Virus record (IMG/VR): IMGVR_UViG_3300011114_000773
Span: 44,298 to 108,297 of that record
DNA: 64,000 bases
Source of the DNA: a virus
Reading direction: 5' to 3' (one strand)
A program made the position numbers and the translations under genes. Under the pieces are notes generated by a model. The model searched no databases, had not been told where the DNA came from, and worked only from the letters and a program-made list of their open reading frames with translations. This document shows, in pieces, positions 12,546-62,314 of this stretch. Every line of letters begins with the position of its first letter. The first letter of the stretch is position 1.

Positions 12546-12556
12546 TATAGGCCTTT
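12537..12556. terminator. weak bidirectional hairpin between convergent genes
   Basis: AAAGGC at 12537-12542 pairs with GCCTTT at 12551-12556 across an eight-base loop. It overlaps both converging stop codons. The stem is short and the T-run is poor (TTTT only on the minus strand), so it is at best a weak terminator. Confidence 0.3.
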
Positions 12557-24459: not shown

Positions 24460-24464
24460 ACATT

Positions 24465-25655
24465 ATGAATTTGATTGAACGCTATTCGCTTTCTTGCGGA
24501 GTCCCTATTGGACAGCCGTATATTTACGAGAAGTTCTTCCCACTTCCAATCGAGAAATATATAACGATACACCCATTTACTAAGCCCGCTAAGACTTATG
24601 ACTATTGGCAGGACGTGGTAGATGAACTGCTGCCGTTCTTAGAGAAAGAAGGTATCAGAATTGTACAAATCGGGGCAAAGAACGAGCCTAAACTCATTGG
24701 ATGCGTACACTTGCAGGGAACAACTAGTGTCTCTCAGGTAGCGTTTTTATTAAATTACTCCATGCTGCATCTCAGCGCGGATACCTTTTCTGCGCATATC
24801 GCTAGCAGCAAGAATATACCGATGGTTACTCTCTTCTCTTCTAGCTATGTGAGTAACTGTTGTGGATATTGGGGAGAGAGGTCTAAGCAGATTTTTCTAA
24901 GTCCTGCTTTTGTGGACGGTAAAAAACCATCGTTCGCCAATGAAGAAAGTCCCAAAACTATCAATACAATACCTTCCGAAAGAGTCTCTCAGTCAGTCCT
25001 AGACCTTTTATCTATTAAAGAAGTAGTCCCCTATCGTACCGTATATGTAGGCTCAAAATATACAAATGGGATTTATTTTCACAATATCGTTCCTACTGAT
25101 GGGGCTGCGGCTATCGAGCAAGATGGCGTAGAAATAAGAATGGATTTAGGATTTAATGAAGAATTCTTGGTTAGGCAGTTGGCTCAAAGAGTCTGTGCCG
25201 TAATTACAGATAGGCCAATTAATATCAATATCATAAGAGACTATAAACCTAGAATCTCTGTAATGTTCGTCTTCGTTAAAGACGATACCTGCCTTCCTTT
25301 TGTCAAGCAACTAATCTCGATAGGAATTAACACAGAGGTCGTGACCTATGAGAGTAGAGAGGCCGAATTATCTAAATTGCGACTCTCATTTTACGAATAT
25401 AAGAGACTAGGAGTTCTTACAGAGCCAGACTCTAAAAGGGTAGAGGAGCTAGGGCGCAGAGACAATCTATTTTTTAAAAGTAACAAGATTTATACATGCG
25501 CTAACAAGAGATTCTTCAGTCTAGTCAGAGATGATTCGGATAAAAAAATCCGTGGACGGAGTACCGATAGCCCAAATAAGTTTTTGCCTATGCCCAAGGG
25601 ACTTGTGGATTATCGTGACTTAGAATTTTTTAAGATTGTCGAAAAGACAGCTTGA
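24465..25655 (+). CDS. GT9 (heptosyltransferase-like) C-terminal half plus extra domain
   Basis: 396-aa protein. Residues about 30-135 match the C-terminal nucleotide-sugar-binding half of GT9 enzymes: YITIHPFTKPAKTYDYW, IVQIGAKNE, LQGTTSVSQVAFLL, and LSADTFSAHIASSKNIPMVT with the conserved D-(S/T)-x-x-x-H-x-A core. The N-terminal half lies at the end of the preceding gene in a different reading frame, five bases upstream. The remaining 250 residues (from about 170) are not recognised; they hold a mixed alpha/beta region ISVMFVFVKDDTCLPFVKQL and a basic helix-rich end. The two genes may make two chains that associate, or one enzyme broken by a frameshift. Confidence 0.65.
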   Translation: MNLIERYSLSCGVPIGQPYIYEKFFPLPIEKYITIHPFTKPAKTYDYWQDVVDELLPFLEKEGIRIVQIGAKNEPKLIGCVHLQGTTSVSQVAFLLNYSMLHLSADTFSAHIASSKNIPMVTLFSSSYVSNCCGYWGERSKQIFLSPAFVDGKKPSFANEESPKTINTIPSERVSQSVLDLLSIKEVVPYRTVYVGSKYTNGIYFHNIVPTDGAAAIEQDGVEIRMDLGFNEEFLVRQLAQRVCAVITDRPININIIRDYKPRISVMFVFVKDDTCLPFVKQLISIGINTEVVTYESREAELSKLRLSFYEYKRLGVLTEPDSKRVEELGRRDNLFFKSNKIYTCANKRFFSLVRDDSDKKIRGRSTDSPNKFLPMPKGLVDYRDLEFFKIVEKTA

Positions 25656-25686: not shown

Positions 25687-26439
25687 ATGAACGACACTCC
25701 TATCTTAAACGCAACAGCGACGCCTCCAATTGTTCTCACCAGAAATTCATTTGGACTCATTGCTAATGTACCATCTATCTCCTACTCCTATACGGATGTA
25801 GGTCTTGTCGATTGGCGTAGGATGATTAACCAGAAATTTCTTGTTCCCAATAAGCAAAAAACAAAAGAAACAGACATCTCAAAACTAGAAGATAAAGACA
25901 TTCTCATCCTTTTAGGCGGAGTGAAAGAGCTTGCTCAAATTCGAGGAATCACTTTTGTCAACTATACGGTTACGACATTCTCAACTGATTCTGTCACTGC
26001 TGTCTGTTCTATCGGATTCATTCCTAATTATGAGACAGAGATGCGCGAAGTCGTCTTTTCTGCCATCGGAGACGCTACAGCGTCAAACACCAGCGGCTTT
26101 GGAAGAAACTTTCTCGCCGCAATAGCGGAAAACCGCGCATTCGTGCGCTGTGTCAGAAACTTTTTAAGAATTAACATTGTCGGTAGCGACGAACTGAATT
26201 CTGAAGGAAATGCTGCACCGTCGGAGCAGACTATAGAAAAATCTGCTGCTGATGGCTCTCCAGTAAGCCTTCTATCTGCCGAGATGGAGAAGCGCGGACT
26301 TAAGTTATCTCATATTATAGCAAGACTCCGTGACGAAAATTACCCCGCTACCGACGCCATTAAAGACCTTTCCGACTTACCCGGAATTAAAGTCCTCGAA
26401 CTAATCGGTCGTATCAAAAAGATACCTGTTAAGTCGTAG
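25687..26439 (+). CDS. putative ssDNA-annealing/recombination protein
   Basis: 250-aa protein. The central part resembles phage annealing proteins of the Rad52/Erf/RecT-like groups: GGVKELAQIRGITFVNYTV, a strand with AVCSIGFIPNYE, then FSAIGDATASNTSGFG and AIAENRAFVRCVRNFLRINI. The last recalls the conserved M-A-E-T-R-A-x-x-R-A-L-R helix of those proteins. A linker (about residues 175-200) leads to a C-terminal helical domain (LLSAEMEKRGLKLSHIIARL, LPGIKVLELIGRI) that resembles a small HHH or SAP-like DNA-binding unit. It has its own promoter and is the last gene of the plus-strand island. The family call is tentative; the alternative is an unrelated DNA-binding protein. Confidence 0.4.
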   Translation: MNDTPILNATATPPIVLTRNSFGLIANVPSISYSYTDVGLVDWRRMINQKFLVPNKQKTKETDISKLEDKDILILLGGVKELAQIRGITFVNYTVTTFSTDSVTAVCSIGFIPNYETEMREVVFSAIGDATASNTSGFGRNFLAAIAENRAFVRCVRNFLRINIVGSDELNSEGNAAPSEQTIEKSAADGSPVSLLSAEMEKRGLKLSHIIARLRDENYPATDAIKDLSDLPGIKVLELIGRIKKIPVKS

Positions 26440-38188: not shown

Positions 38189-41100
38189 TTAGCTTACCTT
38201 TTCTTTGACTGGAGGAGGAAGTCCTCTCTGAGAACTGGTTATTTCTACAAGCTTATTTACAGATATCGCTATTGATGCGAGATTAGACGAGTCGGCCTCC
38301 GCGCTCTTAGAGGCCACTGGAATTGCTGGAGTAGCTGGGTTAGCTGGGGCTATCGGCTGGCCCTTTTCATCAAGACCTTTCTTACGGTTCTCTTCTTTAT
38401 TTTTTTCTTTTTCATCAGCTATCTCGTCTTTTTTGTTCTTATCTTCAAGAGCTTTCTTAATCTCCTCACCTATCTTGTTTAGCGTATCGTTAGACTCCTT
38501 TATAGCCGCTGTCAAGACGTTATTCGCCGCAGTTACCTCGCGAGTGTCAAACACAAACGGCGTAGTAGAGAGTCTCGTTATAGCGGCTTCTAACGATTCG
38601 GTAGATTTTGCTAGCGCGGCATTCGAGTTAATGAGAGGACTCATATCCCCCAAGCCCGCGCCCTTGGCAATGCCCTGCGCTGTGACGTTTTTGTCTTCTC
38701 CCTTTAAAACAGTCCTAGCTCTAGCTAAGTCCAATTCTTGCACGTTACTCGCCCCAAAAGCCCCTAGCGTTTTACGAAGGCCGACTGCTGTCGCGTTGTT
38801 CCCAGCAGACACGATTCCGAATTGACGCGACCTATTTATGGCATTTCCCTTTGCTAACTGAGCCTGAATAGGAGCCACAACTTCGTCAGGGAGAGAGTCC
38901 CCGAACATATTAGTTAAGGCCTGTCCGTACCTCTTGGTAGCAAATCTATCGCCGCGCTCATATCCGCGCTTGTCCTTACGTAGTTGCCTTTCCGCGTCGC
39001 GTTCTTCTTTGCGACTGTCAGGAGCGGCACCGAACATCTTACCCTTTCTCTGTTCGTCTAGTATAGCGATTTGTCCTTTATATGCCTGATTTTGAATCGC
39101 GAGTTGAGACACGGCAGCGGCCCCAGCGTTTTCTATGCCGCGAGTCATAGTGGTGTTTAGTTCGTCAATAAGTTGATATAGTTTAGTGTCCTCTGCCCCC
39201 TTTAAAATCTCGTTCTTAAGAGAACCCTCTGGGGTAATCGCTCCAGTAACAGTTTTGAAATATCCCAGTATCTCTTGAGGAGTCATCGGTGCCCCCTGAC
39301 TTTTTCTGGTATTAACACCCTGAGAAACAACCCCCATAATTCGGGAGACTTCCCCCTTGGCCTTCAATACGTCTTCATTTATCCTAACATCTCCTCCTGC
39401 TGTTTTATACTTGCTATCTGATTTAGATAAAATATTGTCTGTGATTGACGATATAGATTTATTCGCAGCCTCTGTGGAAATAGTAGCTTTCTCTTCTCCT
39501 AATTTGGTATAGACTTCTTGGCTTTTTTGTTCATTGCCTAGTCTTAATTGTGTCCCTGCCCCATATCTCATTCCCGCCAACGAGACTGCATCTGTCCCCA
39601 TTTGTAGATTGACCGAGTTTTTGGTTGACTGAAGCTTGTCGGCAAGAGTCGCCGCCTGTAGGAGATTACCGACATAGGCCTTAACAGAGCTATCTACCTT
39701 ATATATAGCCGTGTCTCTCTTTCCCTCTGCAATTTGCTCGGCGTTTTTCGCATTGCGGATAACCTTAATGTCTCCCGTTCGAGCCGCTGTGATTTCCTTT
39801 TCATTTTTGAGACTTCTCTCTTCTAGTTTGTTGCGAGTGAATAGTTCTTTTGTATATTTTTCAGCGACTGCTAGATTTTTTGTATGCTGCTCATATACAT
39901 CTTGGGTGATGGCTTTTTGAGCGAGAAGAGCTGCCATTACTTCTAAGGCGTTACCTCTTATCGCTTGACGAGTTACGGCTCCCGTGTCAGACGCGCCAAA
40001 TCCGCCCTGACCGCCGACAATGACACGCTGCCGCTGCTCGGTGACATCTTCCAGCAAAGGCATTTTTTTGCGCACTGTCGCGACGGCGTCTGTCTCTTTT
40101 TTACCCAAGTTAGCATATTCTCCACCATATAGTTCTTTTTCCTTTTGAGATATGGATTTTTGCTCCTGCTCTCCCGGACGGAACCATCTGGTTCTTTTCA
40201 ATTCGTCCATCTTTTCAAACTCAAGGGCGCGTTCGGAAGTACCTGTTTCTTTTTTGTGCTCTTCTTGGATGGCTCCAGCAACGCGCTGTCTTCCTTCTGT
40301 AGTTGACTGGGCGTTAATCCTTCCTCTTTCCATTGCGGTCAAACTTAATAAACTCTTGGATACTTTATTTTGAGTGTCTATTATTGTTTTAGTAGAGACT
40401 GAGGCGTCACTATACATCTGACTAAGATTTCCGATAGCTTGGCTATACTCAGAAAGAGCTGTTCCTGATATATTGAACTCGCTCTTCATAACGTCTAGCG
40501 CCGCCGCCATCTCTGGTGATTTATTAGACCAAGACTCCCAAGCCTTTATAAAACCTGGGATACTTATGATAGCAGCCGTAGCTATGCCTAACGGACCCGG
40601 AATGACAGACATCACCTGTGCGGCAGTCCCAAATGTTTCTGCCACCATTGACATCGACTTTCCAGCAGCCGTTTCTTGGGGTATAAATCCGGCGATAGTA
40701 CTAATACCAGCAGATGTGGCAAGTGAGTAAGACATTGACTTTCTATTGAAGTCGTCTTTCTTTTGCGCTTTATCCACCGCCAGTTGAGCCTGTTGTATCC
40801 TCATTGAGTGAGGAGTCTCTGCCAACTTAGCTGTCGTTAAAGCTTGCTCGTCAGCGGCTCTGCTGGCAAACCCTGTCCGGTACGTCTGCATTACTGCTGA
40901 ATTTGACATCTGTGTAGCTCGTCTGGACGTATTCCATCCCGGTGCGCCAGAGGCATTAATTTGTGCTTGAAGTCTCTGATTCTGTTGCGTAAGCACTACA
41001 TGCGCCCTCTTAGCTAAATCTCTCTGGACTGCTGGTCCAGTATTGAGAGCAGATAGGCCAGCTCTTTCAATGATAGACCTCTCACTATACCTGTCGGCTA

Positions 41101-44100
41101 TTTTAGATTCGCTTATATGACGTTCAGCAGCTTCTACTCGGCTACTAAATGGTTTCTGCGCCCTTCTTGCGGCTTCTACTGTTTCAGTAGTCGCTTTTAA
41201 AGTACTTCCAAATTTACTCAATTCAGGAATCATAAATGCCAACGTTCCCAAAAACGCTGACATACCAAAGCCGCCGATTGTTCCAGAAGAATCATCAGCA
41301 AAATTCGGCACATGACCCTTCGCCATCCTCGACATACCCTTAGTCATCGGATTAATTCCCGCGCTTCGTGCCTTGCTCATACCGTCCGAAAGACCAGTTT
41401 CCTGAACAGTGTTCCAAACTCCAAGTCCAGAAGGATTATGAGAGCTAACCAAAGACGGATGTCTGTCAACACGAATAGAACTCATAGGCAGTCCAGCCGC
41501 GTGCTCTCTACGAACCGCGTCTTGGATGGCATTAAAGTTCGGCACATGACCCGCCGCGAACTTCGTATTAACTATCAGTCCAGAATGCACGTCTCTCTGA
41601 CTCGCCCGTTTCGCATAAGCCAATACATCTTCCTTAGTCCTCAAGGAAATCTCTTCGCCAGCCATTGTAGAAACGACCGTCTCTTTCCCATGCCGAATTC
41701 TTTCCATCATTTGAGGAAATGGAAATTTGCCCTTCTGCGCAAGAGCCACACCTGAGATGGCCGAATATCCTTTTTCTTTGGCGTTCGCGAACATCGCCGC
41801 ATAAAGTTCTCTGCTATGGCCCTGACCTTGAGATTTTTTCTTGACTAGAACATCAGAGATTTCTATGCTTTTTCTCAGTTTGGAGAGAGTGGCCGTTCCG
41901 TGTTCGCTTTTGAAAATAGTTTCATTAAACTCTGGCTCTTCAGAGATTGATACTCCAGCGAAGTTAGGGACATGGCCACGGGCTAGAGCGCGAGTATTAA
42001 GACGCTCGATAGAGATGTCGCTCATGTCTTCTAATGGAACGCCATTCACTATCTGGCTAAGATGGGCAAGATTTTTGAACTTATGGACGGAATCTCCCTC
42101 CTTACCTTCGCTAAATGTAGAATACTTCAAGACGCCGGTCGTATTGAATTTATCAGGCTGGTCACGATATCTTAGTTGAGGATATGATTTTTTAAAAATT
42201 TCAAAATTCGATGCTTCAGCGCCCAACTCTTTCTTAGAAGAGTTCAGTGACTGCTGCGACGTTAAAGAGCCAGAATATATTGGCACACCAGCCCTCTTAC
42301 TAAGTTTACCAAGGCGATTAAACAGAGCAAAAGCCTCCCCTTTTTTCTTAGATTCCAAGTACCCTATATCCAAAGCCCCATGATATAACGAATACTCTAA
42401 AGAACTTCCTGCGTCAGTTACGAGTTTTCTATCCCTGCTCTGAGAATCTCTGAATCCCTTTTCCAGACGTATTTCTGCGAAATTTGGTACGTGTCCACCA
42501 GACATTAAGGCTACTTCTTTTTCGTTTTGGTTTTGTATAAGACTTCCATTGTGAGACAGGCTCCCTTTGAAATATCTGTTCACTATATCATTTACGTCAA
42601 ACCCAACGAATTTATGCTCTCTTCCTCTGGCAGCGTTTGCTTCAGAAGTGCTATTTAAAATAGCTTTCCCAATACGTTCTTGGCCGAACCTATTAGTGAG
42701 CTTTTGTATTTTGGCGGCATTTAGAATACGGCTAGTAGGGATAGAATACTCCCCAACCTGACCCCCCCTACCGACGAAATCACTAGCGACTTCCTCACTA
42801 TAACTCGCGGATAATAGGCCGCTTCCGTATGCGTCTTCCTGATGCCGAGCTAGATAACGCCCCAGACCAGATGGAGAAAGATATTCGCCGAAGGCTTGGT
42901 CTTTTAAGGCTTGATGACTATCGTCCATGAGCGTAGAGCCGTCGTCATTTTTTCTTTTATCAAATATGATGCGACGTGTCTCTTCTGGCGTCACCTCTCT
43001 CTTTAGAGCGAGTTTCTGCCGTAGTCTCTCGATTCTTGAGCCTCCAACGCCTCTATATAGTTTAGTAGTTGAGAAGTTCGGTACGTGCCCACCGCTGTAA
43101 AGTCCAGCAATCGCCTTGTCGGCGGGAAGTTTGTTCGCCGCCAATCTTTTGTATAGCGCGGCGGAATTGCTGCCCATATATCCAGATATATGCTCCATCA
43201 TTCTAGGGGTGATAAGCGGCGCGGTAAATTTATTTAAGACTCCTGCTGAAGAGTCGTTAGAATGAGCCTGCCCGAATTTAGACCCAATGCTCTGAGCGAA
43301 GGCTTCGTCAACTAAGTCCATTGGAGAACGCACTTGTGATGAGTAACTTGGGCTGATTTTATTTAGCGCTGCAAGTATCGACGGGTCGCTCTTCGCCTGC
43401 TCTAAGAGAGGGCCGAGCCGGCTAGAGAAGCCTTTTGTCTTTGATAGCTTACTGAACATCCCGTGTCCGAATTCTTCGTGGGCAAACGAATTTCCGAATG
43501 ACTTACGGCTATCGGATACCGCGACTCTTCCGTTTCTTGGATTGAAGTAGCCAGCAGAGTCTGCAACAGAGATTTTGCCTTTTGAATCTTTGTAGATTGG
43601 GTCAAACATCTGAACAGAGTCTTCTCTTGCAAAATTAGGGATATAACCCGCTGCGCGATTTTGCCCCGTCTTTCGCGCCTCGGCCTGCATTTCCGCCCAT
43701 TCTTTCTGTCTTTGAGACAACGCTTTAGAAGCAGGCATTCCTGTAGAGTCGGCCAGCACCTTATGAGCCATGCTTCTACGAGCATCTCCGTCAACATGGA
43801 CCTCAGACTTGAAATCTCCAGTCGTTATATCATTAGGACTTACGCCACCCAAATCGAAAAAGCTAAGAATCTTAGGAAGCAATTTCTTATTTATTGCAGG
43901 CACGTCGAAGTCTGCGCCCTCCCTATTCTTTTTGGCTTTAATGCCGAATGCCGCAACGAAGGCGGCATCAAAAATAGCTCCAGCGCCGCTATGAATTTGC
44001 GATTTGAAGCCCTTTGTATTCTCTTTCGCTCCGAGAACGGCTTCTTGAGAGACGTTCGGGTTGAGTTGCTTCGCGAAACCCTCTGTCGCTATTCCGAGGT

Positions 44101-47100
44101 TAGCCTCCACAAGTTTCATCAGGTCTGGATGACCAGCGGCGATTCCCTTTTCTTTGTTGTATCGACCGACGGCGTATTGCACGCGCATCCCGGCATCATT
44201 AAAATCATAGAAATCTTGCCCGACTCTATCGCTATGATATGCTAAAAGAGCATGACTAATTTTAGGCGGATAAGTCAACTTACCAAGCGCCGACTTCTTT
44301 TCGGCAGTCGTCCTCTTGTCTTCGTCAAAGGTGAACCCAGCTTTTCCCAAAAGAGCAAAATCAATACCGCCCTTGTCGCTCATTTTATTTTCTATTCCTC
44401 TCAGGGCTTTGTTGTCAACGTGCATCGGGTTGAGCATCGTCTCCCTGTTTTTACTGAAAAGTCCACTTGAGCCGTATGCACTTCTTACATGAGCGTACGC
44501 TTCTTCTTGACTCATGGACTCTGCCAATTTTTGTCCAGCCCCCTCTGCCGTTTTAGGTACTAGAGAGTGCTTTGCTGCTTCGTTGTAGGTCTGCTTCGGG
44601 AATTCGAGTGAGAAGTCGATTCCTTCGCTCTGACCGATTTTTTCCCATTCGGTAGAGCTTGGGGTTTTGAATTCTTTATCTTTAGCACGAGCCTTCCTTA
44701 AATACTCAGAACGATTCCTTAGCGACGCTAGGTTACTACCATAAGTTAAATCGTGCCATATCGACGGAGGTAGCGACTTTTTAGCTTCTTCGAGGCCAAG
44801 TCCTTCGCTGTCCTGACGTGATAGCGCCGCCCGAATATCGGTAGCTTGAGCGATACGAGAGTTACCTCTGCGAGCAGGCTGTACGTCCCACCCTTCAATG
44901 AGCCTCTGTCTAGCGAATGATGTTCTTTCTTGGTAAGCTGCCTCAGACTCATTTTCGCCCTTCTCAGAGAGTCTATCTGGCCCGAAGATAGCCGTGCTTC
45001 TCGCCAGACCTTCTTTTCTGATACCGAACTCGTAAGCTTTTCCTCCAGCCTCAAAGGCCTTAAATCCGGGCTTTGTATCGCGGATTTCGCTTGTGACCAA
45101 TGCCTCTGGGTGGAGTCTGGAAATTAAATCAATTTTTTCTGATACGGATAGGCCGACATCGCTTCCTCTTTTTTCGCCGCGAGCTACAGAGATAACCGCT
45201 TTACGGAGCATCGCATTAGGATTCTCCGCAGCATCTTGCGCTTGATGCTCTAAAATGGTCTGATATAGTTCGTCGTGTCCGATATGATACGGGGTAAAAG
45301 CACCGTTCATCGCAAGAACTCCTTGTAACTCCTGAAAGTGAATCTTCTCTTCGTCCGTTTTGTCTCTCATGGAGAAACTATTACCAGACCGCTCTATTAC
45401 TTTTACGGTTGTCTGGTTCTTGTCATTCCAATACTTATGCAGGGCCGCTTCAAGGAAAGCGCCACTAGTAGGCCCGTGGGTATAGCCCTTGCGACCAAAA
45501 GCGGTAGGAGAGTTTTCGTCTTCCGCTCTTTTTGTGCGGAACTGTTTGATTATGTCCGAGGAGGCGACGAGATGAGTAATTGAGCGAGCCTTGTCAAATT
45601 CTTTTTCGTTATGCTGCTCGAATGGATTCGCCAAGGCACGAGTAACGATGACTCTATCGTCGTCTTTAGTGAGCCTCAGCGCTTCCGACGTGCTCCCAAT
45701 GAATGAAGCATTAGGATATTTGCCTTTGATATATGTCGTTTTTCCTACACCAGCAGCGCCAGTTACGAGTTCTCCGATTAGGTCTTTGTTCGTGACATAG
45801 TCTATGATTGCATTGAAATCTTTACGATGTCCTTGCTGTGTTAAGAAGTCCCTATCTAAAACGTGGTAGCGATATTTCTTATCTGGCAGATTGCCTCCAG
45901 CGTAATGCGGTATGACTGCCGAGTCTCCATTTCGACCAAAATTAGGAATCTCTGTCTCCTGATTATTCATCACGAAACGCTTGCCGCCGATAGTACCACG
46001 AGAAGTATGTGCGCGGACCCCGCTAGAAGCGCCCAAGGAGCGGGCCTCGGCCTCTTCACGTTGCATTATGTTAAAATTAGGAACCCATCCATGAGCGACA
46101 GTTGCCATTGTCGCCCTAACTTGTGGGAATATCGGCTGACCACCAATGCCTCTTGGCGGAGTCTGGAGTATTTTCGCTAAATCTAGTGAGTTCCTCTTCA
46201 GAACTAATGTAGCCTCGTTTTGGCTTGCTAGCTCGTGAGTGTATCTACGAGCCGCGTCCACAATGGTTAATCGTCCCGCCCTAATTTCTTCTAGTAAGTC
46301 CGGCTGTTTAGACAAGAAGGCGGAGGTGGACTGCTCAATAGCTTGTAGCCTGCTAGCTTCAGTAGTTATTTGGAAGAACTCTCTAGTAGCTACCGTTCCG
46401 AACTGGACCAATCTTCCAAACAATTTCAGAATAGCAAACGTCGCGATTTGTACGCCGGGTCCGCTAAGGATATTTCCGATTCCTTTTAGTAAACCCTCTC
46501 CAATTTTTTCTCCGATTCCATCTCCGTCGATTTGTCCCGAGAGATTCTCTGCCGCCCATTTTCCGAAATCCAGACCCGATTTCATCACTGGAGCAATTGT
46601 TAAACTACCAAATTTAGACGACATCTCCATAAAGGAGTTCATCGTTTGGGTTAATTTACCAGAAACTGTATTGTTGAGTTCTTCGATACGGCGGTTTGCT
46701 TCTCCAGAACTTTGACCAGCAGCTTTCAAAGCTCCGTCAAAAACGGAGGTTCCCTGTCCCAAATCGCGCATTGCTGCTTTTAAAATGTTAATCTGATAAA
46801 CGCCGCCCAGTAACTCAGCCGTCATTGACCTTTGAGATGGGCCTAGCAAGTCATATCTTTGAGCGAGATTCTTTAAAATGTCAACTAGCGGGCGTATTTC
46901 CCCAGCAGCAGTTCTCGTCTGGACCCCAAGACTCTCCAATTGCTGAAGGACTTCTGGACGACCCATTCTCGTGAAAATTGTCTTGAACGCGTTACCGATA
47001 ACAGCACCACCTCGCGCCGTGCTCTGCTGAACACTCGTAATAAGCGCCAACATCTGATTAAAGGTGACATTTGCGTCGGAAGCGCTAGCGCCGACACGCT

Positions 47101-47728
47101 TAATACCCTCTGCCAAATCTGCTGCGGAAACGGCAAAGCGAGCATCGACAGCAGCCATTCTGTTGACAATCTCCTCCGACGTTAAAGCTTCCTTATTGAA
47201 TGAGTTGAGTGCGGCGGTAATATCCGTCACTGCTACGGTGAAGTTCATTCCAGATAAGCGGGCAAGGATTAAGGCCGATGAGGTTCTCTTAATAGTCTCT
47301 TCGGCAGATAAGCCCTGACGAGAAAACTCCATCGCAGCGGCGGCGGCATCCTTGAAAGAGACGCCTGCTTGTGAGGCGGCAAGAAAAAGGTCGCTAGAGA
47401 ATTTGCCTAATTGACTGGTTGTTAGTCCGAGTACGCTATTAATGCCAGCCATGCTAGCTTCTACTTGGACGGTCGAGCCGATAACTCCGTCAAGAGCAGT
47501 CTTTACGAGAGCAATCGCCAAGGCGGACGCTCCGAACGCGATAACACGGGCGTTAGCGGCTTCGAGAGATTTGGAGAACTCGGACGCCTGTCCAGTAATT
47601 TTACCTAGAGGCTGAGAGAAGCCGCGAGTGTTAAGCTGCCCAATATTCCACGGTCGATTAACAGCCGAGTTAATAGACTGTGATAACGACGCCGTATTTC
47701 CGCCAACTGTTAATACGATTTGAGACAT
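38189..47728 (-). CDS. tape measure protein with embedded polyvalent enzyme domains
   Basis: 3179-aa protein from ATG 47728; an in-frame TTG lies six bases earlier. Residues about 60-370 are the conventional TP901-type tape-measure core: VEASMAGINSVLGLTTSQLG, FSRQGLSAEETIKRTSSAL, NRMAAVDARFAVSAADLAEG, GNAFKTIFTRMGRPE. Residues about 545-2140 hold a series of enzyme-like domains separated by PNF-type linkers (listed separately). The remainder is mostly coiled coil with two hydrophobic stretches (about 2150-2170 and 2350-2395) and a charged, proline-rich tail. A tape measure sets tail length and leaves the tail at infection, so domains carried inside it could enter the host. The length is several times the usual 700-1500 aa. 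It is flanked by tail-tube and chaperone-like genes on one side and tail-tip genes on the other. Confidence 0.9.
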   Translation of the reverse strand: MSQIVLTVGGNTASLSQSINSAVNRPWNIGQLNTRGFSQPLGKITGQASEFSKSLEAANARVIAFGASALAIALVKTALDGVIGSTVQVEASMAGINSVLGLTTSQLGKFSSDLFLAASQAGVSFKDAAAAAMEFSRQGLSAEETIKRTSSALILARLSGMNFTVAVTDITAALNSFNKEALTSEEIVNRMAAVDARFAVSAADLAEGIKRVGASASDANVTFNQMLALITSVQQSTARGGAVIGNAFKTIFTRMGRPEVLQQLESLGVQTRTAAGEIRPLVDILKNLAQRYDLLGPSQRSMTAELLGGVYQINILKAAMRDLGQGTSVFDGALKAAGQSSGEANRRIEELNNTVSGKLTQTMNSFMEMSSKFGSLTIAPVMKSGLDFGKWAAENLSGQIDGDGIGEKIGEGLLKGIGNILSGPGVQIATFAILKLFGRLVQFGTVATREFFQITTEASRLQAIEQSTSAFLSKQPDLLEEIRAGRLTIVDAARRYTHELASQNEATLVLKRNSLDLAKILQTPPRGIGGQPIFPQVRATMATVAHGWVPNFNIMQREEAEARSLGASSGVRAHTSRGTIGGKRFVMNNQETEIPNFGRNGDSAVIPHYAGGNLPDKKYRYHVLDRDFLTQQGHRKDFNAIIDYVTNKDLIGELVTGAAGVGKTTYIKGKYPNASFIGSTSEALRLTKDDDRVIVTRALANPFEQHNEKEFDKARSITHLVASSDIIKQFRTKRAEDENSPTAFGRKGYTHGPTSGAFLEAALHKYWNDKNQTTVKVIERSGNSFSMRDKTDEEKIHFQELQGVLAMNGAFTPYHIGHDELYQTILEHQAQDAAENPNAMLRKAVISVARGEKRGSDVGLSVSEKIDLISRLHPEALVTSEIRDTKPGFKAFEAGGKAYEFGIRKEGLARSTAIFGPDRLSEKGENESEAAYQERTSFARQRLIEGWDVQPARRGNSRIAQATDIRAALSRQDSEGLGLEEAKKSLPPSIWHDLTYGSNLASLRNRSEYLRKARAKDKEFKTPSSTEWEKIGQSEGIDFSLEFPKQTYNEAAKHSLVPKTAEGAGQKLAESMSQEEAYAHVRSAYGSSGLFSKNRETMLNPMHVDNKALRGIENKMSDKGGIDFALLGKAGFTFDEDKRTTAEKKSALGKLTYPPKISHALLAYHSDRVGQDFYDFNDAGMRVQYAVGRYNKEKGIAAGHPDLMKLVEANLGIATEGFAKQLNPNVSQEAVLGAKENTKGFKSQIHSGAGAIFDAAFVAAFGIKAKKNREGADFDVPAINKKLLPKILSFFDLGGVSPNDITTGDFKSEVHVDGDARRSMAHKVLADSTGMPASKALSQRQKEWAEMQAEARKTGQNRAAGYIPNFAREDSVQMFDPIYKDSKGKISVADSAGYFNPRNGRVAVSDSRKSFGNSFAHEEFGHGMFSKLSKTKGFSSRLGPLLEQAKSDPSILAALNKISPSYSSQVRSPMDLVDEAFAQSIGSKFGQAHSNDSSAGVLNKFTAPLITPRMMEHISGYMGSNSAALYKRLAANKLPADKAIAGLYSGGHVPNFSTTKLYRGVGGSRIERLRQKLALKREVTPEETRRIIFDKRKNDDGSTLMDDSHQALKDQAFGEYLSPSGLGRYLARHQEDAYGSGLLSASYSEEVASDFVGRGGQVGEYSIPTSRILNAAKIQKLTNRFGQERIGKAILNSTSEANAARGREHKFVGFDVNDIVNRYFKGSLSHNGSLIQNQNEKEVALMSGGHVPNFAEIRLEKGFRDSQSRDRKLVTDAGSSLEYSLYHGALDIGYLESKKKGEAFALFNRLGKLSKRAGVPIYSGSLTSQQSLNSSKKELGAEASNFEIFKKSYPQLRYRDQPDKFNTTGVLKYSTFSEGKEGDSVHKFKNLAHLSQIVNGVPLEDMSDISIERLNTRALARGHVPNFAGVSISEEPEFNETIFKSEHGTATLSKLRKSIEISDVLVKKKSQGQGHSRELYAAMFANAKEKGYSAISGVALAQKGKFPFPQMMERIRHGKETVVSTMAGEEISLRTKEDVLAYAKRASQRDVHSGLIVNTKFAAGHVPNFNAIQDAVRREHAAGLPMSSIRVDRHPSLVSSHNPSGLGVWNTVQETGLSDGMSKARSAGINPMTKGMSRMAKGHVPNFADDSSGTIGGFGMSAFLGTLAFMIPELSKFGSTLKATTETVEAARRAQKPFSSRVEAAERHISESKIADRYSERSIIERAGLSALNTGPAVQRDLAKRAHVVLTQQNQRLQAQINASGAPGWNTSRRATQMSNSAVMQTYRTGFASRAADEQALTTAKLAETPHSMRIQQAQLAVDKAQKKDDFNRKSMSYSLATSAGISTIAGFIPQETAAGKSMSMVAETFGTAAQVMSVIPGPLGIATAAIISIPGFIKAWESWSNKSPEMAAALDVMKSEFNISGTALSEYSQAIGNLSQMYSDASVSTKTIIDTQNKVSKSLLSLTAMERGRINAQSTTEGRQRVAGAIQEEHKKETGTSERALEFEKMDELKRTRWFRPGEQEQKSISQKEKELYGGEYANLGKKETDAVATVRKKMPLLEDVTEQRQRVIVGGQGGFGASDTGAVTRQAIRGNALEVMAALLAQKAITQDVYEQHTKNLAVAEKYTKELFTRNKLEERSLKNEKEITAARTGDIKVIRNAKNAEQIAEGKRDTAIYKVDSSVKAYVGNLLQAATLADKLQSTKNSVNLQMGTDAVSLAGMRYGAGTQLRLGNEQKSQEVYTKLGEEKATISTEAANKSISSITDNILSKSDSKYKTAGGDVRINEDVLKAKGEVSRIMGVVSQGVNTRKSQGAPMTPQEILGYFKTVTGAITPEGSLKNEILKGAEDTKLYQLIDELNTTMTRGIENAGAAAVSQLAIQNQAYKGQIAILDEQRKGKMFGAAPDSRKEERDAERQLRKDKRGYERGDRFATKRYGQALTNMFGDSLPDEVVAPIQAQLAKGNAINRSRQFGIVSAGNNATAVGLRKTLGAFGASNVQELDLARARTVLKGEDKNVTAQGIAKGAGLGDMSPLINSNAALAKSTESLEAAITRLSTTPFVFDTREVTAANNVLTAAIKESNDTLNKIGEEIKKALEDKNKKDEIADEKEKNKEENRKKGLDEKGQPIAPANPATPAIPVASKSAEADSSNLASIAISVNKLVEITSSQRGLPPPVKEKVS
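41321..41530 (-). other. tape measure subdomain: conserved short peptide cassette
   Basis: About 70 residues between the last two GHVPNF linkers. It contains AIQDAVRREHAAGLPMSSIR, HPSLVSSHNPSGLGVWNTVQ and a final ARSAGINPMTKGMS. It is too short for an enzyme and looks like an amphipathic helix plus an extended loop. From memory, similar peptides accompany PNF linkers in other phage tape measures; no function is known to me. Confidence 0.45.
41553..41960 (-). other. tape measure subdomain: GNAT-like acetyltransferase 2
   Basis: Between two GHVPNF linkers. SIEISDVLVKKKSQGQGHSR followed by ELYAAMFANAKEKGYSAI is a convincing GNAT motif A: beta-4 strand, Q-G-Q-G-H pyrophosphate loop, long helix. 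The strand ISGVAL follows. Conserved neighbours such as MMERIRHGKETVV come later. The acceptor is unknown. Confidence 0.55.
41983..42480 (-). other. tape measure subdomain: GNAT-like segment 1
   Basis: Between two GHVPNF linkers. SSLEYSLYHGALDIGYLES, then KKKGEAFALFNRLGKLSKRA and VPIYSGSLTSQQSL follow the strand-loop-helix-strand order of N-acetyltransferases, with a G-x-A turn where acetyl-CoA would bind. The key Q/R-x-x-G-x-G is less complete than in the second copy, so this is tentative. Confidence 0.4.
42503..43072 (-). other. tape measure subdomain: ADP-ribosyltransferase-like
   Basis: Between two GHVPNF linkers. LYRGVGGSRIERL (near 43055) gives the arginine, LLSASYSEEVASDFVG the S-x-S strand-helix, GEYSIPTSRIL a following strand, and REHKFVGFDV the acidic end. 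This follows the R-S-E order of ADP-ribosyltransferases of the type found in phage polyvalent proteins. A long charged insert precedes the S-x-S motif. Homology is inferred by pattern only. Confidence 0.5.
43096..43631 (-). other. tape measure subdomain: HExxH metallopeptidase
   Basis: Lies between the GYIPNF and the first GHVPNF linkers. SFAHEEFGHGMFSKLSK (near 43475) contains the zinc-binding H-E-E-F-G-H motif, and DLVDEAFAQS about 55 residues later could supply the third zinc ligand (glutamate). This fits a gluzincin-like zinc peptidase. It might cleave the tape measure itself, host proteins or peptidoglycan-linked peptides; the target is not visible. Confidence 0.6.
43735..44345 (-). other. 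tape measure subdomain: possible PD-(D/E)XK-like nuclease
   Basis: Approximate limits. GAGAIFDAAFVAAFG, then REGADFDV (near 43908) and GDFKSEV (near 43810) follow the order acidic helix, D, D-x-K seen in restriction-endonuclease-fold domains. The first glutamate is replaced by aspartate and the last motif is unusual, so activity is doubtful. An unclassified domain is the alternative. Confidence 0.35.
44700..45340 (-). other. tape measure subdomain: HIGH-type nucleotidyltransferase
   Basis: Approximate limits. MNGAFTPYHIGHDELYQTIL (near 45280) has the nucleotidylyltransferase signature G-x-F-x-P-x-H-x-G-H. The late motif NSRIAQATDIRAALSR resembles the I-S-x-T-x-I-R-x-x-L element of the same superfamily (cytidylyl-, NMN adenylyl- and pantetheine-phosphate adenylyltransferases). 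Both active-site elements are therefore present. It directly follows the P-loop subdomain, so the two may form a kinase-nucleotidyltransferase pair. Confidence 0.6.
45450..45800 (-). other. tape measure subdomain: P-loop NTPase
   Basis: Approximate limits. The sequence ELVTGAAGVGKTTYIKGKYP (near 45757) is a Walker A loop in the setting of a small kinase or ATPase: strand, GxxGxGKT, helix. About 25 residues later DDDRVIVTRA is a candidate Walker B strand. The arrangement recalls zeta-toxin-like or other small P-loop kinases, but the family is not certain. Confidence 0.6.
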
Positions 47729-47758
47729 AAACAACCAGTTCCTATCGAGTATTTACAC

Positions 47759-48652
47759 TTATTTTTTATTATTTACGTAGTTTTTACTAGTTTTTACCCC
47801 TGTATCTTGGGATGAGGATTGCCTCTTAGAAAGGAGAATTGAGAAATTCAAATCATACCAATCTATAACGTCTTGTAAAACTGTCTCTTCCTCTATCTCA
47901 ATAGGTTCCGATTCAGAGTTCTCTATAACGCTTAAATTACGAAGGGTTCTATTAAGTATATCTTGTTGATAAATCGTGAAGTTCACTATGGGTTTACCCA
48001 AGTAATTATATAAATTCTTTTTACAGGAGGATATCTGATTTAAAACAAAAGGCATACAAGCTAAGGCGCGAAAATTGTATTCGCTATAGTCTTGCACTGC
48101 TAAAGAGTATTCAGAATGTATCTCCACGAGGTCCGAATCGTCCATTTCGTCATACTCTTCTGCGCTAAATCTTGGTATAGAGAGTGCCGCATCCTTGAAC
48201 ATCGACATCTTTGGGAAAAGCGCCGCGTAATGCCTTGTGCCATGCTGCTCTACTGTAGATTGGATAAGTTCCGCTCTCTTTTCGCTCATGGAGGATAGCT
48301 CTAAGCGTTTTTGAGAGATGATGGATTCTATAGGAGCGCGTTGACTTGGAACCATTATGCGCTCAACTAATTTAGTATTGTCGCTAATAACGAGGCGAAG
48401 AGTGCGTAGGTCGTCTTCGTCTTTATCCGTCCATAGACCCTGTTCTTTTAAAGATGAGAGCCTTTCTGCCTCAGATGGGACGCCCTGTCTTTTTAATTCT
48501 TGAATATACTGACGTTTAGAGCGGATTAGCTCTGCATAGTCTAGCTCGGTTAGATGCTTAACGAAACACGAATACTTTTCGCACCGAGAACGCCCAGTAA
48601 TTACGTCAGCGTATATAGTCTTTAGAAACTCATACTGCTGTAGGACTTTCAT
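47759..48652 (-). CDS. putative tail assembly protein upstream of tape measure
   Basis: 297-aa helical protein, not recognised at family level. It has long charged helices (ELDYAELIRSKRQYIQELKR, SQKRLELSSMSEKRAELIQS), an acidic stretch (AEEYDEMDDSDLVEIHSEYS) and a Ser/Gln-rich C-terminus. Position directly before the tape measure, and a 23-base overlap with the preceding gene, match tail assembly chaperone pairs (G/GT type). No typical slippery heptamer is visible in the overlap, so a programmed frameshift is not supported. The chaperone role is inferred from gene order. Confidence 0.5.
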   Translation of the reverse strand: MKVLQQYEFLKTIYADVITGRSRCEKYSCFVKHLTELDYAELIRSKRQYIQELKRQGVPSEAERLSSLKEQGLWTDKDEDDLRTLRLVISDNTKLVERIMVPSQRAPIESIISQKRLELSSMSEKRAELIQSTVEQHGTRHYAALFPKMSMFKDAALSIPRFSAEEYDEMDDSDLVEIHSEYSLAVQDYSEYNFRALACMPFVLNQISSCKKNLYNYLGKPIVNFTIYQQDILNRTLRNLSVIENSESEPIEIEEETVLQDVIDWYDLNFSILLSKRQSSSQDTGVKTSKNYVNNKK

Positions 48653-49475
48653 TATTCGTCAAAGAGTCCCTGAATGGATAATCTGGAAATTCGAGGTCGT
48701 AGTTCTCTAGCGCAGACTTCATAACCTTTTCTGCCGCAGCCACAGACTCAGGTTTATCGTCAACAGCCTTGAAGACGGCTCCGCCAGCCCAACAGCTTAC
48801 GAAGTATGTCAACTTGCGAATGGCCTCACGCATAGCCAAGTCCTTGCCCTCGCTAATTTCAGCAGACTTATCAAGTTGAACTTCAAGTTCTTCGTCTTTG
48901 AAGATATCTTTTCCGGGGAACAGCCTAACCATTTTGCCGGTCGAGTCCTCAATGAGAGAAAGATGAATAAGCCACCAATTCACGGCCTTATTTCGCGCTT
49001 TAAATTCAGCGGTTTGATTGTAAATATTTATATACGGATTTTGTATCGCGTCGATATCTCTTTGAACGCGAGTGATGACACGGAGGGCTTCGTTTTCAGA
49101 AGCGGTGTCATCGTCGGTCTTGACAGTTTTACTCGAAGTCTCCCAGTATCTTCTAATAGCGGCGGTCTTTTGTTCGTTAAGACTCGTGATGACTTTCGAT
49201 TCGGCTTCATTGAATGGCCCGCCGTCGTTATCGTATCGTTTTGCGAGCATGTGCAGGCTAAGAAGGCCGTTCTTCATGTATTCCGCGATAGTCTTCGCAT
49301 AGAAGATTTCCGCGCCCTCTGCCACGCGACGACCGGGCTTCAAAAGACTTAATTTAATCGGCTTGAGCTTTTTTACCTTCTCAATAACCGTTACGCTCTT
49401 TCCTTCAATTTCTTTTTGAGAAGAAACATTTTCCTCGACCTCTTTTAGAACAGAAATGTCAAATAAAGTATCCAT
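48630..49475 (-). CDS. putative tail assembly chaperone-like protein
   Basis: 281-aa helical protein. It opens with an acidic region (ISVLKEVEENVSSQKEIEG), then a basic segment (VIEKVKKLKPIKLSLLKPGR), a long charged middle and a tryptophan-containing helix (NKAVNWWLIHLSLIED). A disordered end SLTNNESPTAV overlaps the next gene. In tailed phages the two genes between tail tube and tape measure usually code for tail assembly chaperones, and this gene fits by position and helical composition. No sequence signature confirms it. Confidence 0.5.
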   Translation of the reverse strand: MDTLFDISVLKEVEENVSSQKEIEGKSVTVIEKVKKLKPIKLSLLKPGRRVAEGAEIFYAKTIAEYMKNGLLSLHMLAKRYDNDGGPFNEAESKVITSLNEQKTAAIRRYWETSSKTVKTDDDTASENEALRVITRVQRDIDAIQNPYINIYNQTAEFKARNKAVNWWLIHLSLIEDSTGKMVRLFPGKDIFKDEELEVQLDKSAEISEGKDLAMREAIRKLTYFVSCWAGGAVFKAVDDKPESVAAAEKVMKSALENYDLEFPDYPFRDSLTNNESPTAV

Positions 49476-53156: not shown

Positions 53157-57421
<4,265 letters not shown>

Positions 57422-60718: not shown

Positions 60719-62314
60719 TTATTTTACACTGAAAGTACCTGCTTTGAGAACTTCTGCCCATTTATTTTTTTTGCCTGAATCGGCTGCGTTAGGGATGCCT
60801 GCTGTAATCTTGGTAGCATTATCGAGAGCATTGTCCACGACGCCTTGTTTTCCAGCGGCAGGGGTATTAGCGACGATTGCGAATGGAACTAAAACGTCGT
60901 GCATCTTAGTCATCCATGCCGCAAAAAGTTCATCGGTATTCGCGGCTTTAATGTCTTCGACAAAAACTTTGCGAGCGCCATCAGTGAGACTGAACTTCTC
61001 GTCTAGTGCAGCCATGTGCTTATTGAACGAGGCCAAGGCAACAGCGTCAGCTTTTTCCTTATCGGCAATTTTGATAGTATTAACTGCCACGGCCAAATCC
61101 GCTTTAATCGTCTCTGCCGAAGCTTTCAACGCATTAATCTCATCCTGCAAAGCCTTAACAGTGGCTTCGTCTTTCGTCTTTGATTCCTGCCATGCCTTGT
61201 CGGCATCGGTCATAAAATCGGTAATGGCGGAAGCGGTAAGCTGCTTCAAACTTTCGTCGGTGATATCGGAAATCTTCGAGATTTTCATGGTGTTAGGTAC
61301 TTCAGTTTTTATTACATGAGATTTGGACGTTTGGGAAATAAAATTTTTAGCTTTACCTTCTTTCCCGCATTTAGCGCACATACGCTTGCCACTCATCATT
61401 TTCATTTTACCATCTTTACAATCAGAGCACGTTTCGTCTTCACTGTTTTTGTCCGCAGTATCCTCAGTGTCTTTCTTCGGTTCATCTGGCTCTGATTTAC
61501 CCGCCTTATCCTTTTCATCACTAGGAGTTACGTCTTTTTTCGTGAAAGGAATAAATCCAGCAGCAATTTCTTTATTTTGATTCGTCTTCGGCGTGGTTAT
61601 GCCACGAACTTCTGCTGCGGGAGAAGCTGTGAGTCCGATTCCTAATGGGACTACCGCGCCGATGGGCATACGATAATAATCAAATTTCCCATCCGAACCT
61701 GTTCCGCCAAGGCCTTTTAGAGTACTCGCAAGCGACGCAATCATATTTATATCGTCAATGATTTCGGCATCTTCAAGATTTTTGTCGCCTGTCGATATTT
61801 TAGCAATCTTATAATTAGTGAAGCCAAGTTCCCAACTAGCAGAGACGGAATTGAAATTAAGAGATGTCGGGTCGCTAGAATCTTCAATAACTCCAGCGAG
61901 TTTGGGGTCCGCTATCTTCCAGAAAACGCCGCCTAATACGATATTATATGGCTCTTTGGCGATAGCTGCCGCAGCCTCATCCATAGGCTCATCCGTGCCA
62001 AACTTGGTAAAGCCAGAAGTCAGTATGACGCCAACGATTTTTTCCCTATCATGCTCGAAATTGATAGGTTTATTAAGAAATCCCTTGTAAGACGCTACAG
62101 CCTGTTCGGAACCGAGAACGTCTCCATTTTTATTTCCTCTATTTACGACACAGGCGTCAAACGCAATAGGAAGAAGGTCAATGGAATTAACCTTTGGGAG
62201 AAACTTAGCTAATGTCGCGCTGGAGGCCACCGCCAGATACTTGTCTTTCTCTGCTGAGACGAGTGGTTTAACAATCGAACTAAATGACATTCTTAGCAAT
62301 TTCTCTAGGTCCAT
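60719..62314 (-). CDS. prohead maturation protease fused to scaffold, with zinc ribbon
   Basis: 531-aa protein. Residues about 45-170 match HK97-type prohead serine proteases: NKNGDVLGSEQAVASYKGFL, KPINFEHDREKIVGVI with catalytic His88, and FNSVSASWELGFTNYKIAKI, whose serines (156-160) include the nucleophile. A charged, disordered linker (about 255-295) leads to a zinc ribbon with two C-x-x-C pairs (CSDC at 296-299, CAKC at 313-316). The last 200 residues are a coiled-coil scaffold (VKALQDEINALKASAETIKA) with a basic C-terminus. Protease-scaffold fusions are known in phages; the zinc ribbon between them is unusual. It is the first gene of the capsid block. MSFSSIVK (residue 9) is an alternative start. 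Confidence 0.8.
   Translation of the reverse strand: MDLEKLLRMSFSSIVKPLVSAEKDKYLAVASSATLAKFLPKVNSIDLLPIAFDACVVNRGNKNGDVLGSEQAVASYKGFLNKPINFEHDREKIVGVILTSGFTKFGTDEPMDEAAAAIAKEPYNIVLGGVFWKIADPKLAGVIEDSSDPTSLNFNSVSASWELGFTNYKIAKISTGDKNLEDAEIIDDINMIASLASTLKGLGGTGSDGKFDYYRMPIGAVVPLGIGLTASPAAEVRGITTPKTNQNKEIAAGFIPFTKKDVTPSDEKDKAGKSEPDEPKKDTEDTADKNSEDETCSDCKDGKMKMMSGKRMCAKCGKEGKAKNFISQTSKSHVIKTEVPNTMKISKISDITDESLKQLTASAITDFMTDADKAWQESKTKDEATVKALQDEINALKASAETIKADLAVAVNTIKIADKEKADAVALASFNKHMAALDEKFSLTDGARKVFVEDIKAANTDELFAAWMTKMHDVLVPFAIVANTPAAGKQGVVDNALDNATKITAGIPNAADSGKKNKWAEVLKAGTFSVK

What the first reader, a model, noticed from the sequence alone, without database searches (positions are those of the whole stretch)
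41301..46100. Tape measure protein carries a cassette of at least six enzyme-like domains
The sequence shows a normal TP901-type tape-measure core at the N-terminus. It is followed by a P-loop domain, HIGH nucleotidyltransferase, PD-(D/E)XK-like segment, HExxH peptidase, ADP-ribosyltransferase-like domain and two GNAT-like domains, all in one open frame, and then a coiled-coil C-terminal half. Tape measures leave the tail with the DNA, so these domains could be delivered into the host as effectors or counter-defence proteins (inference). Multi-enzyme phage proteins called polyvalent proteins are known; carriage inside the tape measure is the notable part.
Basis: partly seen in the sequence, partly recalled or inferred. 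Interest (0 to 1): 0.92.

Follow-up and report, generated by a model that had tools for sequence, protein, structure and literature searches.

The report
Phage tape measure with modular cargo
In a large group of uncultured phages, the protein that sets tail length also carries a swappable string of enzyme-like domains separated by a repeated seven-residue tag (consensus G-F-I-P-N-F-A), which suggests that these phages use the tape measure to carry, and possibly inject, a customisable set of host-acting proteins.

Summary
One frame (38189-47734, minus strand, 3181 aa) has a PhageMin_Tail/TP901-type core followed by a ~1600-aa multidomain cassette (aa ~545-2146). It is not an assembly error: an independent contig repeats the junction under purifying selection, and more than 100 other viral contigs share the architecture. 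P-loop, HIGH nucleotidyltransferase and second GNAT assignments are supported. The PD-(D/E)XK and ART assignments rest on residue signatures only. The claimed HExxH is really HEEFGH (HExxxH).

Every module boundary carries a short motif, [A/K][A/S]xG[F/Y/H][I/V]PNF[A/S]. It occurs 481 times in 113 related tape measures (0.5 expected from shuffles) and never in 289,512 residues of neighbouring proteins. It lies in predicted-disordered linkers. Its aromatic positions vary in concert within a protein although its codons do not. Modules recur in other tape measures at other positions.

Best reading: a tape-measure polyprotein with exchangeable cargo, whose delimiter is recognised in trans (processing or docking) and whose modules enter the host with the DNA. 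Delivery and processing are inferred. It is a new variant at the junction of polyvalent proteins and enzyme-bearing, processed tape measures.

The parts
38189..47734 (-). Tape measure protein ORF, 3181 aa; likely start is the ATG at aa 3 (L006 begins MSQIVLTV there)
46115..47734 (-). TP901/PhageMin_Tail-type core, aa 1-540
   Evidence: PF10145 1.6e-28; PHROG tape measures; relatives in viral contigs, most with 41-95% identity
46070..46090 (-). Delimiter motif copy, GWVPNFN, aa 549-555 (core/cassette border)
45875..45895 (-). Degenerate motif position (GNLPDKK, aa 614-620), aligned to GFVPNFA in L240
   Evidence: alignment A8
45365..45871 (-). P-loop module, aa 622-790, Walker A aa 659-667
44705..45364 (-). 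HIGH-type nucleotidyltransferase-like domain, aa 791-1010
   Evidence: GxFxPxHxGH and xxATxIR-type motifs in window, L240, L164; further relatives L242-L244
44060..44704 (-). Unassigned segment, aa 1011-1225
   Evidence: no Pfam or significant PHROG match, no relative found
43649..44059 (-). PD-(D/E)XK-like module, aa 1226-1362 (D1256, D1277, D1307, K1309, K1325)
   Evidence: signature conserved in ~105 sequences; fold not confirmed
43628..43648 (-). Delimiter motif copy, GYIPNFA, aa 1363-1369
43091..43627 (-). Metallopeptidase-like module with HEEFGH (HExxxH), aa 1370-1548
   Evidence: sequence; weak similarity to the L025 HExxH module
43070..43090 (-). Delimiter motif copy, GHVPNFS, aa 1549-1555
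42497..43069 (-). ADP-ribosyltransferase-like module, aa 1556-1746 (LYRG, SxS)
   Evidence: relatives in L116, L023, weakly L068; PDB hits not significant
42476..42496 (-). Delimiter motif copy, GHVPNFA, aa 1747-1753
41978..42475 (-). GNAT-like module 1, aa 1754-1919
   Evidence: relatives in L068, L055, L025 and three copies in L023; model pLDDT 76-92
41957..41977 (-). Delimiter motif copy, GHVPNFA, aa 1920-1926
41552..41956 (-). GNAT module 2, aa 1927-2061
   Evidence: Pfam GNAT 3.5e-4, below cut-off; relatives in L080, L226, L222, L152
41531..41551 (-). Delimiter motif copy, GHVPNFN, aa 2062-2068
41318..41530 (-). Conserved terminal 'GLGVYN' module, aa 2069-2139
   Evidence: 109 hits in related tape measures
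41297..41317 (-). Delimiter motif copy, GHVPNFA, aa 2140-2146 (cassette/C-terminal border)
38192..41296 (-). C-terminal half of the tape measure, aa 2147-3181
   Evidence: sequence; coiled coil not tested
47759..48652 (-). Gene adjacent to the tape measure in all 73 loci compared; position suggests a tape-measure chaperone
   Evidence: function inferred from position only
48630..49475 (-). Second gene present in all 73 loci compared, same inferred role
60719..62314 (-). Gene orthologous to a conserved upstream protein; its sequence suggests prohead protease/scaffold (from memory); unproven candidate for processing
   Evidence: no Pfam or PHROG match

Best explanation
This is a cargo-bearing tape measure. 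Shown: a normal tape-measure core and a long C-terminal part are separated by a cassette of exchangeable modules, each bounded by copies of a short linear motif (consensus [A/K][A/S]xG-F/Y/H-I/V-P-N-F-A/S) that is confined to this protein family and lies in predicted flexible linkers. Inferred: the modules are effectors that reach the host cytoplasm with the tape measure and DNA at ejection and act there early, for example by modifying host proteins (GNAT, ART), altering nucleotide or NAD metabolism (P-loop plus nucleotidyltransferase), or cutting nucleic acid (PD-(D/E)XK-like). Inferred: all motif copies in one protein are recognised by the same trans-acting partner, most likely a protease that separates the modules from each other and from the tape-measure rod, as T5 pb2 and lambda gpH tape measures are cut during morphogenesis.
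For: Motif enrichment: 481 observed against 0.5 expected by shuffling in 113 tape measures, and 0 in 289,512 residues of neighbouring proteins. Placement: copies at the module borders, the first always at aa ~530-646. Flexibility: all four copies in the family model lie in or at pLDDT<50 linkers between better predicted segments. Peptide-level selection: synonymous sites of the copies are nearly as diverged as background (0.54 v 0.62). Concerted variation at the two aromatic positions (0 of 1000 shuffles), with L008 all PNL, L027 all PNY, window mostly GHVPNF. Modularity: window modules recur elsewhere at other positions and copy numbers; GNAT-1 occurs three times in L023; the P-loop/HIGH block begins right after a motif in L240 and L242-L244. 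Purifying selection on the cassette. Precedent: T5 pb2 and lambda tape measures are proteolysed, in T5 separating the muralytic domain (PMC10038345); the lambda tape measure is labelled by ManZ proximity labelling during injection (PMC13190303); tape-measure-like effectors are loaded in contractile injection systems (PMC13277306).
Against: No protease was identified, and no cleavage or delivery data exist. The only protease-like gene (prohead type, from sequence inspection) lies in the head module, and the motif occurs in no neighbouring head protein. Folded modules in several copies are hard to fit in a tail lumen, which requires unfolding, removal before assembly, or another location. Most modules match no Pfam family, so enzymatic activity is unproven. 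The PD-(D/E)XK fold was not recovered by Foldseek. Concerted motif variation could also come from duplication within a lineage.
Confidence: 0.5

Rival explanations
1. The motif is not cut but is a docking tag: each copy binds one partner (a tape-measure chaperone, tail-tube protein or unfoldase) that keeps modules threaded or unfolded in the tail. The modules are still delivered, as one chain.
For: Two conserved genes next to the tape measure in 73 of 73 loci could be such partners. The motif is hydrophobic and predicted flexible. Concerted variation within a protein fits any single partner.
Against: No direct evidence separates this from cleavage. Placement at module borders, on both sides of the cassette, is more natural for cleavage.
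Confidence: 0.3
2. The modules are cut off before tail completion and act in the producing cell (late host control, assembly or superinfection exclusion), so the tape measure serves only as an expression platform.
For: Resolves the problem of fitting folded domains in the tail lumen. T5 and lambda tape measures are cut during morphogenesis (PMC10038345).
Against: Early host-takeover activities would gain nothing from late expression; the link to a tape measure would be arbitrary.
Confidence: 0.12
3. The cassette is structural: non-catalytic domains that tune tail length or stiffness, with enzyme resemblance being remote or degenerate.
For: HExxH is interrupted in the window; the first PD-(D/E)XK glutamate is Asp in the window; most modules have no Pfam match.
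Against: Active-site signatures are nearly invariant across ~105 sequences for the nuclease-like module; Walker A and both nucleotidyltransferase motifs are kept together; the number of modules varies several-fold among relatives.
Confidence: 0.07
4. Assembly error joining unrelated genes.
For: None found.
Against: Independent contig L006 spans the junction with dN/dS 0.09; more than 100 contigs share the architecture.
Confidence: 0.01

Closest known systems
Polyvalent proteins of phages and conjugative elements (PMC5512222)
   Same: Many conflict-type domains in one polypeptide, including ART, GNAT, peptidase and nucleic-acid-targeting types; encoded among virion genes; inferred co-injection with DNA; proteolytic processing noted for some (DarA, DdrB).
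   Different: Here the backbone is a tape measure and the boundaries bear the same short motif. The word 'tape' does not occur in that paper.
Enzyme-bearing, processed tape measures (T5 pb2, lambda gpH, TM4; PMC10038345, PMC1796659)
   Same: T5 and TM4 tape measures carry an added enzymatic domain; T5 and lambda tape measures are cut during morphogenesis.
   Different: Known added domains are cell-wall hydrolases, usually one per protein; here there are several diverse modules with a shared delimiter.
Tape-measure-like effectors of contractile injection systems (Sle1, Tme; PMC13277306)
   Same: Tape-measure-related carrier with an exchangeable functional domain loaded in the tail tube.
   Different: One C-terminal domain per protein in bacterial nanomachines; no internal multi-module cassette or delimiter motif reported there.
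Polymorphic toxins and MuF toxins (PMC3482391, PMC5576092)
   Same: Constant carrier with swappable effector modules.
   Different: Variable part is a C-terminal toxin tip, not an internal string between a core and a long C-terminal half.

Membership tests
Tail tape measure protein (PhageMin_Tail/TP901 type) | Profile match of the N-terminal core | tested here: met
   PF10145 1.6e-28; PHROG tape measures to 2.1e-45
Tail tape measure protein (PhageMin_Tail/TP901 type) | Position in the tail gene block, with adjacent conserved genes | tested here: met
   Seven neighbour families in 63-73 of 73 loci; one has a marginal tail PHROG match
Tail tape measure protein (PhageMin_Tail/TP901 type) | Gene length sets tail length | not testable with these tools
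   Uncultured phage; tail length unknown
Polyvalent proteins | Several conflict-type catalytic domains in one polypeptide | tested here: met
   P-loop, nucleotidyltransferase and GNAT-2 supported; ART, PD-(D/E)XK-like and GNAT-1 by signature or family only
Polyvalent proteins | Encoded near virion genes | tested here: met
   It is the tape measure gene itself
Polyvalent proteins | Delivered to the host with the DNA | not testable with these tools
   Needs virion and infected-cell proteomics
Processed tape measure (T5 pb2/lambda gpH type) | Proteolytic cut of the tape measure during morphogenesis | not testable with these tools
   Motif placement and predicted disorder are compatible; no cleavage data
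HExxH zinc metallopeptidase (module at aa 1370-1548) | HExxH helix | tested here: not met
   Window reads HEEFGH, one residue too long; L025 has true HExxH three times
PD-(D/E)XK nuclease superfamily | E...D...(D/E)xK signature | tested here: met
   98-100% conserved in ~105 family members; the first E is D1256 in the window
PD-(D/E)XK nuclease superfamily | Characteristic fold | tested here: inconclusive
   Modest-confidence model (pTM 0.40), no PDB or BFVD match
HIGH-type nucleotidyltransferase | GxFxPxHxGH and C-terminal xxxTxxR motifs | tested here: met
   Both in the window and, with small changes, in L240 and L164; no Pfam match
GNAT acetyltransferase (aa 1754-1919 and 1927-2061) | Profile match or fold | tested here: inconclusive
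   aa 1927-2061: Pfam 3.5e-4, below cut-off. The joint model gave a 58-column match to AcrVA5 (GNAT by prior knowledge), prob 1.0, E 0.017; which module it covers is not stated. aa 1754-1919: no profile match, confident fold, unassigned.
ADP-ribosyltransferase | R-S-E catalytic pattern and fold | tested here: inconclusive
   LYRG and SxS present; significant only to other tape-measure modules; model of this region has low confidence

The most novel reading that the evidence does not exclude
A widespread class of tape-measure polyproteins: the tail ruler is an injectable, reconfigurable payload carrier, with a universal GxIPNF delimiter that one dedicated phage or host factor reads to release or thread each effector. 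That would be a phage-borne delivery code with the carrier and the tail rod encoded in one chain.
Probability: 0.4. Interest if true: 0.93.

Novelty: new variant of a known kind. Interest (0 to 1): 0.83.

Why it matters
It offers a sequence handle (the delimiter motif) for finding many probable phage effectors and anti-defence proteins, most with no known family. It makes directly testable how proteins travel in a phage tail, whether the cargo counts towards tail length, and how domains are released.

Tried and rejected
Cassette and module searches of cultured phages found nothing; the N-terminal core finds only remote tape measures. A single-sequence scan of the cassette in viral contigs found no relative. 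Pfam, PHROG, PADLOC and PDB sequence searches of separate modules gave few significant matches. Multi-module alignments for folding collapsed and were discarded. Foldseek of the family model gave no match; ribosomal S3 hits of the window model are read as multi-domain noise (rmsd near 19). Poly-ubiquitin hits of the ART-like module come from summing weak repeats and were rejected. The idea that the motif is a DNA-level recombination site was rejected because its codons differ synonymously. A capsid-type protease as cutter is unsupported because the motif is absent from neighbouring head and tail proteins. Literature searches for the motif or for tape measures with such domains found none.
Full report
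Observation. The window is bases 44298-108297 of a 108,297-base virus record. One frame on the minus strand, 38189-47734, encodes 3181 aa. PF10145 matches aa 122-309 at 1.6e-28, and tape-measure PHROGs match aa 21-461.

Real and selected. Contig L006, from another sample, crosses the core/cassette junction. dN/dS is 0.037 in the core (95% identity) and 0.088 in aa 541-787 (85% identity), with synonymous divergence near 0.8-0.9. This excludes an assembly error and shows that at least the P-loop part is under purifying selection.

Family. The core alone recovers 26 contigs. Host assignment is therefore only a hint. Cultured phage records hold no cassette relative.

Delimiter. In 113 non-redundant tape measures with a 5' end, G[x][VIL]PN[FY] occurs 481 times against 0.5 expected by shuffling. 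The consensus is [A/K][A/S]xG[F/Y/H][I/V]PNF[A/S], and the first copy is mostly at about aa 540 or 630. None was seen in 289,512 residues of neighbouring ORFs; one GFIPNY in window ORF 25687-26439 is taken as chance. A scrambled pattern of equal degeneracy gave 39 stretches, none with two matches. Synonymous positions of the copies differ in 54% of pairs at four-fold sites, against 62% background, so the peptide is conserved rather than a recent DNA duplication. The two aromatic positions are more alike within a protein than shuffles allow (0 of 1000), while the V/I position and the residue after the motif are not. L008 uses PNL at all four copies and L027 PNY at all four. A model of a minimal cassette (L190, 33 sequences, mean pLDDT 62, pTM 0.40) puts the four copies in or at pLDDT<50 linkers between better predicted segments.

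Architecture. The commonest form is core - motif - ~80-aa linker - motif - nuclease-like module (~250 aa) - motif - ~70-aa GLGVYN module - motif - C-terminal half. Others insert further modules, up to a dozen or more motif copies. 149 non-redundant extra modules were scanned: a few match Pfam (GNAT in several; one staphylococcal nuclease, 1.9e-9) and most match nothing.

Window modules. P-loop: Walker A is kept in divergent relatives. P-loop plus HIGH nucleotidyltransferase forms one block shared with L240 and L164 and later found in L242-L244; in L240 and L242-L244 the block begins right after a motif. Nuclease-like: G..FE (98%), FD (99%), D/E-x-K (D 80%, E 20%; K 100%) in about 105 sequences, matching the order of PD-(D/E)XK active sites. 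The window has D1256 for the first E, and neither PDB nor BFVD gave a structural match, so I call it PD-(D/E)XK-like. Peptidase-like: HEEFGH, not HExxH; the closest module, in L025, is aligned with a one-residue gap but at E=0.62. ART-like: relatives in L116 (6e-6) and L023 (8e-4), with non-significant PDB hits including ADP-ribosylating toxin chains. GNAT-1: relatives in L068 (4e-21), L055, L025 and three copies in L023; it folds with pLDDT 76-92, while most of the ART-like and GNAT-2 regions do not. GNAT-2: Pfam 3.5e-4, below the curated cut-off. Foldseek of that model matched AcrVA5 (a GNAT-type anti-CRISPR, by prior knowledge) over 58 columns, prob 1.0, E 0.017; which module is covered was not reported.

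Mechanism. Established precedents: T5 pb2 and lambda gpH tape measures are cut during tail morphogenesis, in T5 separating a muralytic domain (PMC10038345). The lambda tape measure is labelled by an inner-membrane host protein during injection (PMC13190303). Tape-measure-like effectors are packaged in contractile injection systems and can be re-equipped with another functional domain (PMC13277306). Polyvalent proteins are inferred to be injected (PMC5512222). I infer that the cassette modules are carried for action in the next host. A trans-acting recognition of the delimiter is inferred from its conservation, flexibility, border placement and concerted variation. Cleavage is my first choice and docking the main rival; the data do not separate them. 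A speculative variant, from memory only, is self-cleavage at Asn-Phe.

Novelty. The ingredients are known separately. The combination of a tape-measure backbone, a multi-module cassette and a universal delimiter was not found in the papers searched. I rate it a new variant of a known kind and leave open that the delimiter marks a new delivery code.

Noticed in passing
L025:9914-21460 (+): Extreme case: at least 14 motif copies in a truncated 3849-aa tape measure, with three true HExxH modules and a HipA-like kinase-looking module (by eye).
   Followed up: partly
L243:6836-21058 (+): Very large tape measure ORF of at least 4741 aa with six motif copies and the P-loop/nucleotidyltransferase block.
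   Followed up: partly
L019, L130, L007, L085 tape measures: Other modules by eye look like a GHKL ATPase (L019), staphylococcal nuclease (L130; one Pfam SNase hit in the set), HAD phosphatase and ParB-like (L007), and a protein kinase-like domain (L085).
   Followed up: no
L008:9896-17749 (+): Tape measure with a consistent variant delimiter GGF[V/I]PNLA at four borders.
   Followed up: partly
L023 and L019 tape measures, C-terminal 500 aa: C-terminal elements such as GGAVPRYATGG and GSLPKYASGG after GEYVI-type segments resemble the delimiter and could be its evolutionary source.
   Followed up: partly
window 22543-25655 (+): Two adjacent glycosyltransferase-like genes (Pfam Glycos_transf_1 1.4e-5, Glyco_transf_9 2.1e-4, both just under cut-off).
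   Followed up: no
window 53157-55898 (-): 913-aa protein with a collagen-like GATGATG repeat tract and Ig-like looking segments, probably a tail fibre or surface protein.
   Followed up: no
window 12542-16819 and 16839-21890 (-): Two very large ORFs (1425 and 1683 aa); the 1683-aa one has no Pfam match.
   Followed up: no
window 42900-43050 (-), within the ART-like module: Weak ubiquitin-like similarity (single-ubiquitin E about 0.5); probably chance.
   Followed up: no
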